From the NCBI RefSeq assembly GCF_900496995.4, contig NC_044024.1:12402698-12466697 (forward strand): a stretch of DNA of 64,000 nucleotides, written 5' to 3'. The translations under genes were made by a program, and so were the position numbers. Shown piece by piece: positions 13,617 through 44,281 of this stretch. Under the pieces are notes generated by a model. It was not told the DNA's origin and ran no database searches. It was given only the letters and a program-made list of their open reading frames with translations. The stretch is from Aquila chrysaetos chrysaetos. Lineage: Eukaryota > Chordata > Aves > Accipitriformes > Accipitridae. Every line of letters begins with the position of its first letter. The first letter of the stretch is position 1.

Positions 13617-13622
13617 TTTATT
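13617..13622 (-). promoter_or_regulatory. GABRA3: AATAAA hexamer overlapping the stop codon
   Basis: The end of the reading frame, CAA TAA followed by AA, creates a perfect AATAAA. Use of it as a polyadenylation signal would leave a 3' UTR of only some tens of bases. It may simply be chance. Confidence 0.4.
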
Positions 13623-13947
13623 GTTTGGGGATCATTCCCTTGATAGCTGACTCCCGGTTTACGTATGTGGCCCAGTAGACCAAGTTGAAAATGGCAAAGA
13701 GGACTGGAAAGACGATGCGGGACATCTTGTCTACCTTGCTGACGCTGTTGTATGTCTTCTTACTCTCTGGGAGCTTCTCCTCTATGCGGGGCATCTTGGG
13801 GGGTACGTTGGTGGCAGTAGCAGTGGCAGCAGCACTCTTGGAGATGGTGGGCAGGCCAGGGTCCTTGGCAATGTTGAGGGCATATGTGGTGCCAACAATG
13901 TTGTAGGTGTTGTTGGTTTTCTTCGCTAGTGCCACTGGCTCTTTTTT
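13618..13947 (-). CDS. GABRA3: GABRA3 last coding exon (M3-M4 loop, M4, C-terminus)
   Basis: This exon encodes the final 109 residues of the GABA-A receptor alpha-3 subunit plus a TAA stop. It starts in phase 0 after the acceptor TTCCCTAG. Residues 1-75 form most of the cytoplasmic M3-M4 loop. They include [11 protein letters not shown] (residues 15-25), which matches the gephyrin-binding motif specific to alpha-3 (FNIVGTTYPIN in mammals, recalled from family knowledge). An Ala/Thr-rich segment ([10 protein letters not shown], residues 38-47) comes next; this part of the loop varies among species. Residues about 76-97 ([20 protein letters not shown]) are membrane helix M4, followed by the short extracellular tail [14 protein letters not shown]. 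That tail separates alpha-3 from alpha-1, -2 and -5; mammals have Arg where this sequence has Pro in MIPKQ. Identity is very secure. Confidence 0.97.
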
Positions 13948-18845: not shown

Positions 18846-21691
18846 CTCATTCTGTTCAGACACAGCCCTTCTGTCCTGAAGTGGATCCTTTTAACAAGAT
18901 ATTTTGAGGATGCTGGAGATAGAGAGCTTTGCTGGCTACTGAAACCACTCATCTTTCAATCTCTTTGGCCTCTCACTCCTCCCCAACTACTGCCATCTCC
19001 CACCTTCCTCCTGATGATGTTTTTTTTAAAATCATCTTTACTAATGAGTTTTCCACACTGGATCCAGATACCTCTCTCCAATTTGATCTGTACCTCTAGG
19101 TTGGTTGCAGCCACTCTGCCATACAAAAGGAGAGGAAATCCTTCATCCACAATTAGCGATTACTGGTGGCAGGCAGGAAAGGCTTGAAAAATATTTGGAT
19201 CCAAGAAGCATTAGTCAAATCTTACCAGAGTGCGTGGTAAAGGGACTTTTTGGTAACATCTATGGTGATATCTGCCTGCCTTTCATTAGAGGAGAACTGC
19301 AGAGAATGTGCAGAGTATCTCCCAGCTAGAACCACAACCCAGCTGTGGCTATAGACAGAACATCATCATGATCATTTATGATGCAGAGATCAGCAATTCA
19401 CCAAGATCAGCCCATCATGTTAGATTCTACCAGAAAAAATGCTCTGTTCCCATCTAAACTGATGGGTTGGCTGAAGGGGAGAATGACAGAATGGAACCAG
19501 CCCTGAGAGAGTGAACATGCTGGGAGTGCCTGTCACCAACCAGCAGCTTTTGCAAGGTAGTGATTTCTTTCAAATGGGATGGGAAGCATTGCTGCTGCCT
19601 ACATTTGAGGTGAGGGAAGGGCTGATGCTTATTGATTTTTTTTTCATGTTCATGCAATGAAACAATCAAACCTGGAGTGAGGATCCTTGCCATCACATCA
19701 ATAAAAAGCATTCTTTTTGGCTGGGGGGAAGGCTCTCCAGAGACCAGGGCTCAGCCTGGGCTTGTCACTGGTAGTTTTACTCCTGATACAAACACTTTAA
19801 AATGCCAATAGTTATTCTTTTGCCTCCTCTTTCTTTTGTGGTTTCCACCACCTGGCTTGTCAATTGTTTCAAGAAGAGCTAATTAAAGGCTGAAACTGAG
19901 CCAATGAGGCACCTTCATTGCGTAGCAAATTCACTGCTTGGAAATATTCAATGGAATAAAGGTGAAAAGCAAATATGGTGACACATCGTATTCCCAAGCT
20001 CCCTGGAAGCCCACTACTCTTCAGGGAGCTCTCTGAGCTGCAGAGAATGGGAGCGGGTTAGCCTTCTAAGATAAAGATTAGGGTTAGCTTGAAAAAACAT
20101 CTCCAAATTTGGAGTCCTTCCTGATTCTCCAGCATAATACCAATAGCAGCAAACTCGCAAAGAGCCCTCCCTCTGAAACATTCCTGGTCCTGCTTTGTTT
20201 TCTTGTTTGATTACCATGTGCACAAACATTCTGCCTGCTCTTACCCTATTGTTTCAGCACTGTTAGTCTTGCAGTGCTGGGTCAATGAATAAATTAAGGA
20301 GTGTGCTTCTTCTGTGACAAATAGAAGCTTTTGAGCCTTTGCTGCTTTTTTGGCTGTGCCCAGTTCACATAATTGCTCAAGGCTGAGCAGAGTCAGTGAA
20401 TCCTGATTTAGTGCTGATTTTCCTGTCCCTGAAAGGGACGTGGTTGCTTTGAGGACCTGTTCTGATCCTTCGCTCATGCCAATGACCCGGGAAAGGCTTC
20501 TCTCATCTCTAGAGGCCAGATTAGCGTTATTGTTCATGATGGAAGTGGAAGACCATCAACTGGCCTCCTCTGGAGCCTTTCTGCCGTGAGTCTGTTGCTT
20601 AGACCACAGCTGCAAAAGCAAACAGATAGAGAGAGTCCAAGAAACACAAGAGAGAGGCATTCAACACCCAGTGATGGCTGTGGTTCTCCATAAGGCCTCT
20701 GTTCTCCTGCTTTGACCTCCACACCAGAGAGATGACTGGCTGTTGTCTTCCCAAAAGTTACTGCAATTCTGCCAGGTATTTGCATACAGCCCCACAACAA
20801 TTTTAAACAACACATTAAAATGCAAAGGAGAAAAATATAAAGGCTCCAGAACCAAGAACAAGGACAAAGCTGATTTTCAAATTGATTCAATAAATATAAA
20901 CAAGGAGCAGCATGCTACAGTAAGCGATTTCTCTGTGCAGCCGAGATTAAATCAGTTAGGAGGGAGGGGGCACGAGCAGGGGTAGCGGTGGCTGTCAGGA
21001 AGGAAGCTGCCAGAGAGGCTGATCCCGAGTGAGAAGGGAAAACGTGGGTGATGCCAGGCACTAATTTACTGCCAGTTGCCGTTTCTGATTGCTTGCTTCC
21101 CACCCACCCTCTTTGCCCGAGCTTACAAAGCAGCAGCTGCCGGCAGCTGCGGGCAACAGCACAAGCATTAGACCTTCCCATCGCTGCACCATGCTTGCCC
21201 GTGCCAGGGGAGACCTACAGTCGGGGATACCAGCCACAGGGGACACAGCAGAGTAGGACCATCTCCATTGGTGAGGCTAGCATCCCATGGCCTACTTGGG
21301 TTTGTGTGGCATGCTAGCAACATGGAGCGTGGCATTTATGGGTTGGAGGGAGAAGAAAGGAGAGGAGACCACTGGTGGAGCAAGACCAAAACATGCACGC
21401 ATTCATGTTTCCACTGGCAAATGGTCGTGCAGAAGGACGGAGGGAAAAGTGAGCAGTCAGGCCTGGGTGTTTTTCTCCAGCTAAGCACGGTGGCCAGCCC
21501 TCCAAGCCCTTCCTCCCTCGACCCTCAAGAACCACTCCAGTTGAGACCTGAGCTGAGGACCCCAGTAAGTAGCATCCAGCCTCCTGGAGTGCTGCGGGGC
21601 TGCATGTTACCCACTCCTGGCCCCAGCGCAGCTCTCTCGTGCAGTGTTTCTTCACCACCCGCTCCCCCCCAGCCTTGGCCACAGGGCTGAC

Positions 21692-21903
21692 CTTCATCTC
21701 TTGGGCTTCCAGCACCTTCTTGCCATCCCAAGCCCAGCTGCGCTTGGTGAAGTAGTTGACGGTGGCAAATTCGATCAGCGCAGAAAACACAAAGGCGTAA
21801 CAGACGGCTATGAACCAGTCCATGGCCGTCGCGTACGCCACTTTAGGTAACGAGTTTCTTGCGCTGATGCTTAGTGTGGTCATGGTGAGGACGGTGGTGA
21901 CAC
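21692..21903 (-). CDS. GABRA3: GABRA3 exon encoding M2 and M3 (212 bp)
   Basis: The exon starts with GT, completing a Gly codon split from the 153-bp exon, then encodes 70 residues ending [11 protein letters not shown]. Residues 1-13 ([13 protein letters not shown]) are the main part of pore-lining M2, including the 9' leucine at residue 5. ARNSLPKV is the M2-M3 linker that couples agonist binding to gating. Residues about 24-46 ([20 protein letters not shown]) are M3. The rest starts the cytoplasmic loop. Residue 31 is the Ile of the known I/M editing site, with genomic codon ATA at 21809-21811. The acceptor is TTTCCATAG. The donor is GTCAGC, weaker than the usual GTAAGT. Reading on past the donor stays open to 21314. 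Confidence 0.97.
21794..21839 (-). promoter_or_regulatory. GABRA3: Exonic hairpin for A-to-I editing at the I/M site
   Basis: On the transcribed strand GGCGTA (21839-21834) pairs with TACGCC (21799-21794) and GACGGC (21830-21825) pairs with GCCGTC (21808-21803), separated by a symmetric 3x3 internal loop. Next comes a C-A mismatch (C at 21824, A at 21809), then ATG/CAT closes an 8-base loop. The mismatched A is the third base of the Ile ATA codon in M3. In mammals GABRA3 is edited by ADARs at exactly this codon, changing Ile to Met. The pairing is read directly from the sequence; that editing occurs in this species is inferred. Confidence 0.75.
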
Positions 21904-26334
<4,431 letters not shown>

Positions 26335-26478
26335 CTGTGCTGGATCGAACCATCTCTGTCCCAACAACATGGCCCAGCAGGTCATACTGGTTCAGGCGAG
26401 ATCCACCCTTCGCTACTTCCACTGATTTATCCTTCCCCAGTGTCCAGGTGTAGATCACTTCCGTCTTTGTGTAGGCAT
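26335..26478 (-). CDS. GABRA3: GABRA3 exon encoding loop F region (144 bp)
   Basis: The exon begins AT, completing the Tyr split from the 83-bp exon (FGS-Y-AYTKTEV), and ends with a single G. It encodes 47 full codons. [20 protein letters not shown] leads into [20 protein letters not shown] and EMVRSST, the beta-strand, loop F and start of loop C of the extracellular domain. The family consensus is closely followed, and the exon length of 144 bp is the canonical one for this position. The acceptor is CTCCTCCGCAG. The donor is GTACTT. Confidence 0.97.
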
Positions 26479-30232: not shown

Positions 30233-30315
30233 AGCTCCCAAATTTCAGCGGGCAAGCATGCACATCCATTGGGAAGTCCTCCAGGTGCATGGGGCACTCT
30301 GCATGAATCGTTAGC
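30233..30315 (-). CDS. GABRA3: GABRA3 exon encoding the Cys-loop (83 bp)
   Basis: The exon begins with G, completing the Arg of YTMRLTIHAE, encodes 27 whole codons and ends with T of a split Tyr codon. It holds the complete signature Cys-loop of pentameric ligand-gated channels, [15 protein letters not shown], with Cys at codons 7 and 21. The 15-residue loop forms the disulfide at the membrane-facing end of the extracellular domain. The length of 83 bp is the family standard. The donor GTAAGT and the acceptor TTTGTCTTGTAG are good. Confidence 0.97.
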
Positions 30316-40103: not shown

Positions 40104-40324
40104 CTCATGGTGTACAGGAGGGTGCCATTGTCCACCAGGCGCAGCAGCTTGTTGGGTGTTGTCATGTTATGGGCAACAGATTTCTTCCCGTTGTGGAAGA
40201 AGGTATCAGGAGTCCAGATCTTACTGGCCAGCAGGTTGTTCAGGGGAAGTATTTTCATGGGACCGTCAAATTTCAGCCTTTCATCTCTCCAGGATTGCCG
40301 GAAAAAGACATCAATAGTGTATTC
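40104..40324 (-). CDS. GABRA3: GABRA3 exon with principal ligand-binding segment (221 bp)
   Basis: The exon encodes 73 codons plus AG of a split Arg, starting in phase 0 at [10 protein letters not shown]. It continues through [35 protein letters not shown] and [16 protein letters not shown]. The Phe-Phe-His of [10 protein letters not shown] contains the histidine (codon 44, CAC at 40193-40195) that makes alpha-1, -2, -3 and -5 receptors sensitive to classical benzodiazepines; alpha-4 and -6 carry Arg. The region forms strands of the extracellular domain at the alpha/gamma and beta/alpha interfaces. The size of 221 bp is canonical. The donor is GTAAGT. The acceptor, CTCCACAAAG, follows a pyrimidine tract. 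Confidence 0.97.

Positions 40325-44281
<3,957 letters not shown>

What the first reader, a model, noticed from the sequence alone, without database searches (positions are those of the whole stretch)
21794..21839. Genomic ATA and an intact ADAR hairpin at the GABRA3 I/M editing site
The transcribed strand folds into two perfect 6-bp helices split by a 3x3 internal loop, then a C-A mismatch at the third base of the M3 Ile codon (A at 21809, minus strand), then a 3-bp closing stem. The edited adenosine sits in an A-C mismatch with U as its 5' neighbour, the context ADARs prefer. Mammalian GABRA3 is known to be recoded Ile to Met at this codon. The genome here has not fixed ATG (Met), so I infer that editing is kept in this lineage.
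Basis: partly seen in the sequence, partly recalled or inferred. Interest (0 to 1): 0.75.

Follow-up and report, generated by a model that had tools for sequence, protein, structure and literature searches.

The report
GABRA3 RNA-editing hairpin in a bird
This is the known spot where a brain receptor's messenger RNA is edited from isoleucine to methionine, seen here in a bird genome with its editing hairpin intact; the site itself is ordinary, and the new detail is a longer intron hairpin nearby that may help recruit the editing enzyme.

Summary
Window 21794-21839 (minus strand) lies in GABRA3 exon 9 of a bird and forms the hairpin described, with A21809 in an A·C mismatch between U and G (the apical stem is better read as 5 bp than 3). 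It matches Rfam RF01803 at 77.1 bits. The I/M site, its editing in chicken and the hairpin's conservation in birds are already in print.

The inference that editing is kept is probably right, but "ATA, not ATG" is weak evidence. Five of six alpha-subunit genes found in this genome carry ATA, and all six pass the Rfam cut-off; only alpha-3, and less exactly alpha-1, folds. A GC3-matched synonymous null gives P 0.02-0.04.

Stronger support: the most stable of 287 hairpin domains found in the window (44 bp, -65.6 kcal/mol) starts 155 nt downstream in intron 9, where mouse has a proven editing inducer; all 23 listed bird alpha-3 proteins keep Ile, while listed frogs, most ray-finned fish and some squamates have Met; ADAR1- and ADAR2-type exons are present.

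Editing itself was not observed, and homology of the intron hairpin to the mouse inducer is unproven.

The parts
21794..21839 (-). I/M editing hairpin in GABRA3 exon 9
   Evidence: Folds as described, 17 of 17 pairs; Rfam RF01803 at 21791-21844, 77.1 bits
21809..21809 (-). candidate edited adenosine, third base of the ATA codon, opposite C21824
   Evidence: Sequence and fold; correspondence to the mammalian I/M site via RF01803 and the exon 9 peptide
21525..21654 (-). intron 9 hairpin, 44 bp, candidate editing-inducer element, 155 nt 3' of the edited base and 37 nt after the donor site
   Evidence: -65.6 kcal/mol, most stable of 287 hairpin domains found in the window; lowest energy of 168 windows in the downstream introns of six alpha genes
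21692..21903 (-). GABRA3 exon 9 (212 bp)
   Evidence: AG/GT boundaries and open frame across joined exons
13618..13947 (-). GABRA3 exon 10, coding part to the stop codon
24525..24677 (-). GABRA3 exon 8
26335..26478 (-). GABRA3 exon 7
30233..30315 (-). GABRA3 exon 6
40104..40324 (-). GABRA3 exon 5
44183..44250 (-). GABRA3 exon 4

Best explanation
This is the avian copy of the known GABRA3 I/M A-to-I editing site. In the pre-mRNA the exonic hairpin presents A21809 in an A·C mismatch to ADAR, and deamination makes AUA (Ile) read as AUG (Met) in transmembrane helix M3. The 44-bp intron hairpin 155 nt downstream probably (about 0.65) acts as an inducer that concentrates ADAR on the transcript before intron 9 is spliced out. 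Shown: gene, codon, both predicted folds, contrast with paralogues, presence of ADAR-type genes. Inferred: that editing happens in this species, that it rises with development as in mammals, and that the intron hairpin induces it.
For: Hairpin with the A·C mismatch and RF01803 at 77.1 bits; exon 9 peptide closest to alpha-3 chains of the PDB; a 402-codon open frame over seven exons. Chicken GABRA3 stated to be edited in brain and retina (PMC4449034, passage); GABRA3 stem-loop listed among elements conserved in birds (PMC4378963, passage). Intron hairpin ranks first of 287 domains, at +155 nt and 44 bp, against +143 nt and 54 bp in mouse (PMC5654063, passages). All 23 listed bird alpha-3 proteins keep Ile while 10 of 10 frogs and 39 of 40 teleosts listed have Met. 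ADAR1-, ADAR2- and ADAR3-type exons in the genome (names from recalled motifs).
Against: No RNA data. ATA also occurs in four other alpha genes and RF01803 also rings over its cut-off in five other alpha genes. The GC3-matched null is only P 0.02-0.04. Against the intron part: domains of 40 bp or more are common here (55); the next domain is only 3.2 kcal/mol weaker; alpha-2 and alpha-5 introns reach similar z, -3.5 and -3.2; mean pair probability falls to 0.77 in the longest context; mouse primer ends give no clear match.
Confidence: 0.85

Rival explanations
1. The site is edited, but the intron hairpin has nothing to do with it: a chance structure in a GC-rich intron start, or one related to splicing.
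For: 55 unbranched domains of 40 bp or more in 128 kb of strand sequence; similar z values in alpha-2 and alpha-5 introns; no clear match to the mouse primer ends, and the best local match of the 5' primer in the region lies just beyond the hairpin's 3' end; only one genome seen.
Against: It is the most stable of 287 domains although its GC content (0.58) is not the highest of the top rows, and the place was fixed beforehand by the mouse element. Inducer action is reported to be independent of sequence and tolerant of position (PMC4053975, passages), so lack of sequence match is not strong evidence against.
Confidence: 0.3
2. The hairpin is mostly a by-product of the conserved peptide and high GC3, and the site is not edited in this species.
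For: Random synonymous recoding already gives 14.6 of 17 pairs on average; unedited-looking paralogues share the codon.
Against: Alpha-2, -4, -5 and -6 do not fold; chicken, another bird, is stated to be edited; the intron duplex.
Confidence: 0.08
3. The exon belongs to a paralogue or a pseudogene rather than GABRA3.
For: Alpha-5 exon 9 of this genome is 94% identical in protein.
Against: Seven exons with splice sites and an open frame; the exon 9-10 part is identical over 178 residues to a protein named alpha-3 of Falco peregrinus; alpha-5 is a separate locus on C23.
Confidence: 0.01

Closest known systems
Mammalian GABRA3 I/M editing site
   Same: Exon 9, AUA codon in M3, exonic hairpin (PMC2831006, PMC2694175 and PMC3391646, passages)
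   Different: Bird; editing not measured here. In mouse brain 631 of 679 reads carried G (PMC2831006)
Chicken GABRA3 editing (stated in PMC4449034, which cites Ring 2010 and Daniel 2011; those two not read)
   Same: Same gene and site in a bird, edited in brain and retina
   Different: No avian nucleotide sequence was at hand to compare
Rfam RF01803 (GABA3)
   Same: Full-length match over the gathering score
   Different: The family also rings over its cut-off in five other alpha genes of this genome, and its consensus shows U, not A, at the edited place
Mouse Gabra-3 intronic editing inducer element
   Same: Long intron 9 duplex about 150 nt downstream (149 nt, 54 bp, +143 nt in mouse: PMC5654063)
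   Different: 130 nt, 44 bp, +155 nt here; sequence homology not shown; function untested
GABRA1 exon of the same genome (L002)
   Same: ATA codon and a stable hairpin at the homologous place, -22.9 kcal/mol
   Different: The A pairs with U inside 12 uninterrupted base pairs instead of facing C; no editing report seen in the listing

Membership tests
GABRA3 I/M editing site | Lies in GABRA3 exon 9, M3 | tested here: met
GABRA3 I/M editing site | Genomic ATA codon | tested here: met
   not specific, 5 of 6 alpha genes
GABRA3 I/M editing site | Exonic hairpin with the A in an A·C mismatch | tested here: met
   17 of 17 pairs
GABRA3 I/M editing site | A-to-G in brain RNA, rising in development | not testable with these tools
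   no RNA data at hand
Rfam RF01803 | Score over the gathering cut-off of 57 bits | tested here: met
   77.1 bits; six loci of the genome also meet it
Gabra-3 editing inducer element | Long stable intron duplex about 150 nt downstream | tested here: met
Gabra-3 editing inducer element | Sequence conserved with the mouse element | tested here: inconclusive
   only two primer ends available; paired score 81 near the hairpin, reached by 0.7% of minus-strand positions, while the best places elsewhere score 103-109
Gabra-3 editing inducer element | Deletion lowers I/M editing; the duplex is itself edited | not testable with these tools
   needs a minigene or nuclear RNA

The most novel reading that the evidence does not exclude
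In this bird GABRA1 also has ATA at the homologous codon, with the A inside 12 uninterrupted base pairs and between U and G. Birds may therefore recode Ile to Met in alpha-1 as well as alpha-3, a second I/M site; I saw no such report in the 15 of 210 papers listed by the one search made for it.
Probability: 0.12. Interest if true: 0.6.

Novelty: already known. Interest (0 to 1): 0.3.

Why it matters
The exonic site is textbook. What would matter: (i) an inducer duplex in birds would mean that the two-part substrate (weak catalytic hairpin plus recruiting intron duplex), described in mammals, goes back to the amniote ancestor or arose twice; (ii) the residue table shows Met in the listed frogs, most ray-finned fish and some squamates but in none of the listed birds or mammals, so GABRA3 is a good case to ask why some lineages keep editing and others hard-wire the edited residue; (iii) an Rfam hit to RF01803 should not be read as an editing site without checking which alpha gene it lies in.

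Tried and rejected
Rejected: reading genomic ATA, or the Rfam hit, as proof of editing. Rejected as a measure: counting base pairs of the intron hairpin (55 domains of 40 bp or more); domain energy was used instead, a choice made. A weak mir-4874 match at 21548-21632 (20.9 bits against a gathering score of 70, E 0.56) was taken as chance; it overlaps the intron hairpin. The plus-strand RF01803 match (25.9 bits) is the mirror of the same hairpin. Searches read minus-strand loci on the wrong strand and were replaced by 31 and 32. The second protein search was meant to add squamates; it added one. The GRIA2 positive control for the hairpin scan never ran. Ohlson 2007 (PMC1852825) and a DOI that I recalled for the 2012 inducer paper are not held. 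PMC8659423 (passages) does not mention GABRA3. PMC4449034 names GABRA3 once, in its introduction; its own chicken data as seen in the passages do not include it.

Answered paper searches: (open-licence library only; each shows the top 5-30 titles and abstract starts). For an inducer in birds: in whose listings I saw none; PMC5654063 has no word 'chicken' in its main text.

Full report
What it is. The window lies in a 1.234-Gb genome held in 144 contigs. Its minus strand carries seven exons of GABRA3, numbered 4-10 here by counting from the published exon 9; joined, they give 402 open codons and a stop. The exon 9-10 part equals a protein named alpha-3 of Falco peregrinus over all 178 residues compared, and equally that of an antbird; the other 21 bird entries are 94-99% identical except one parrot entry at 81%. 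Of 119 PDB sequences matched by the exon 9 peptide, the two best are alpha-3 chains.

The observation. The finding's letters, coordinates, codon, 5' neighbour and mismatch are correct. The helices are GGCGUA/UACGCC and GACGGC/GCCGUC, and A21809 faces C21824. The apical stem is 5 bp with one G-U pair rather than 3 bp (-22.9 against -21.6 kcal/mol), and the minimum-energy fold pairs part of the 3x3 loop (-23.7). The helices persist in contexts of 46-414 nt and 681 and 1201 nt. Rfam RF01803, "Editing element of GABA-3 exon 9", matches end to end at 77.1 bits and is the only match in the window at its gathering score.

How far beyond chance. One of 200 dinucleotide shuffles folds as well (z -3.55). 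A fairer null keeps the protein: with uniform synonymous codons P is 0.0075 (n = 2000); with codons matched to the local GC3 of 0.70, P is 0.041 for energy and 0.021 for all 17 pairs (n = 10000). The peptide alone gives 14.6 of 17 pairs on average. One genome therefore gives modest support; the identification rests on the known family and published editing.

Controls inside the same genome. RF01803 gives seven matches at E up to 10, six of them over the cut-off (69 candidates were scored, so this is a lower bound). Those six are alpha subunits, named by me from the flanking peptide, with GABRA1 (77.8 bits) above GABRA3 (77.1). Five of six have ATA at the I/M codon; alpha-2 has ATT. Of the 20 loci fetched from 24 exon-peptide matches, the 14 that are not alpha subunits have Val, Leu or Phe codons there. 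Alpha-2, -4, -5 and -6 fold no better than their recoded controls (P 0.55-0.90). Alpha-1 folds (-22.9 kcal/mol, P 0.029), with its A paired to U inside 12 uninterrupted pairs, but its 16 of 17 pairs in the alpha-3 structure is not unusual (P 0.15). Between alpha-3 and alpha-1, two inner-helix pairs differ on both sides at wobble positions and remain pairs: 21830/21803 is G-C against C-G, and 21827/21806 is G-C against U-A (from the sequences). With two genes this is suggestive only. So neither ATA nor an RF01803 hit alone identifies an editing site.

The intron hairpin. In mouse, I/M editing depends on an inducer in intron 9: 149 nt, 54 bp, 143 nt downstream; its deletion cut reporter editing from 40% to under 10% (PMC5654063, passages), and from 37% to none detected in PMC4053975 (passages), where other duplexes could replace it and moving it changed editing little. 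I scanned the downstream introns of the six alpha genes (28 windows of 150 nt each, 60 shuffles per window): the lowest energy of 168 windows (-74 kcal/mol, z -3.3) is in alpha-3 at +120. In a finer scan of 30 windows z ranges from +0.9, where the hairpin is cut, to -4.27. The element is one unbranched hairpin at 21525-21654, 44 bp, -65.6 kcal/mol, 155 nt after the edited base and 37 nt after the donor site. Of 287 non-overlapping domains of at least 25 bp, found by folding 6384 windows of 160 nt on both strands, it is the most stable. Against it: the second domain reaches -62.4; by base-pair count it is not unusual (55 domains of 40 bp or more); alpha-2 and alpha-5 introns reach similar z; its mean pair probability is 0.81, 0.96 and 0.77 in contexts of 430, 681 and 1201 nt; and two mouse primer ends, the only mouse sequence at hand, give no clear alignment. 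I put about two in three on its being the avian counterpart.

Who keeps Ile. Two protein searches (best 120 listed of 1706 hits, and of 1307; 138 distinct proteins) were read at the I/M residue. Clades were assigned by me from the printed names; several entries are called hypothetical or unnamed, one teleost entry is called alpha-2, and one entry labelled Amniota was put with the mammals. Ile: birds 23 of 23, mammals 26 of 26, turtle and crocodilian 2 of 2, salamanders and caecilian 3 of 3, coelacanth and lungfish 2 of 2, sturgeons 2 of 2, cartilaginous fish 5 of 5. Met: frogs 10 of 10, bichir, gars and bowfin 6 of 6, teleosts 39 of 40 (the exception is an unnamed Coregonus protein that may be another paralogue). 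Squamates are mixed, 7 Ile and 6 Met, with both states among geckos and among iguanians. Six further entries (other subunits, or no usable name; 4 Ile, 1 Met, 1 Val) were set aside. Met has thus probably been fixed more than once elsewhere, while the listed bird entries keep Ile. Caveats: these are cluster representatives and gene models, some share a species, and a protein cannot tell ATA from ATT or ATC.

Enzymes. The adenosine-deaminase domain PF02137 gives 23 exon matches at five places. Motifs in the fetched loci fit ADAR2 (C6, both motifs sought), ADAR1 (C9 near 26.97 Mb, PCG motif only) and ADAR3 (C3, HAE motif only); the names rest on recalled motifs.

Mechanism. Shown: gene, codon, both predicted folds, paralogue contrast, Ile in the listed birds, deaminase genes. 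Inferred: ADAR, recruited by the intron duplex, deaminates A21809 before intron 9 is removed, giving Met in M3. Reported effects in mammals are smaller currents, slower activation and faster deactivation (PMC2694175, passages) and lower surface expression (PMC3391646, passages), with editing rising during development. [quoted passage not shown] That avian listing rests on Rfam models, which here also hit the paralogues.

Verdict. A correct observation of a known site. Editing in this species remains to be measured.

Noticed in passing
L002 (G000:C22:8248350-8248403, minus strand): GABRA1 exon has ATA at the I/M-homologous codon inside a stable hairpin (-22.9 kcal/mol, 12 uninterrupted pairs, A paired with U): possible second recoding site in birds.
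   Followed up: partly
L002-L007: Rfam RF01803 passes its gathering score at six alpha-subunit genes of one genome; alpha-2, -4, -5 and -6 do not form the hairpin, so the family is not specific for editing sites.
   Followed up: yes
proteins P0026-P0033, P0036, P0040, P0046, P0056, P0123: Squamate alpha-3 proteins are mixed at the I/M residue (7 Ile, 6 Met), with both states among geckos and among iguanians: possible repeated hard-wiring of Met.
   Followed up: partly
window 24623-24776, minus strand: A 56-bp unbranched hairpin (-60.2 kcal/mol, rank 3 of 287 domains) spans the exon 8 acceptor site.
   Followed up: no
L018 (G000:C21:12345897) and L023 (G000:C21:12601765): A gamma-like and a beta-like subunit exon lie on the same contig on either side of GABRA3, fitting a receptor-subunit cluster; the subunit names are my reading of the peptides.
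   Followed up: no
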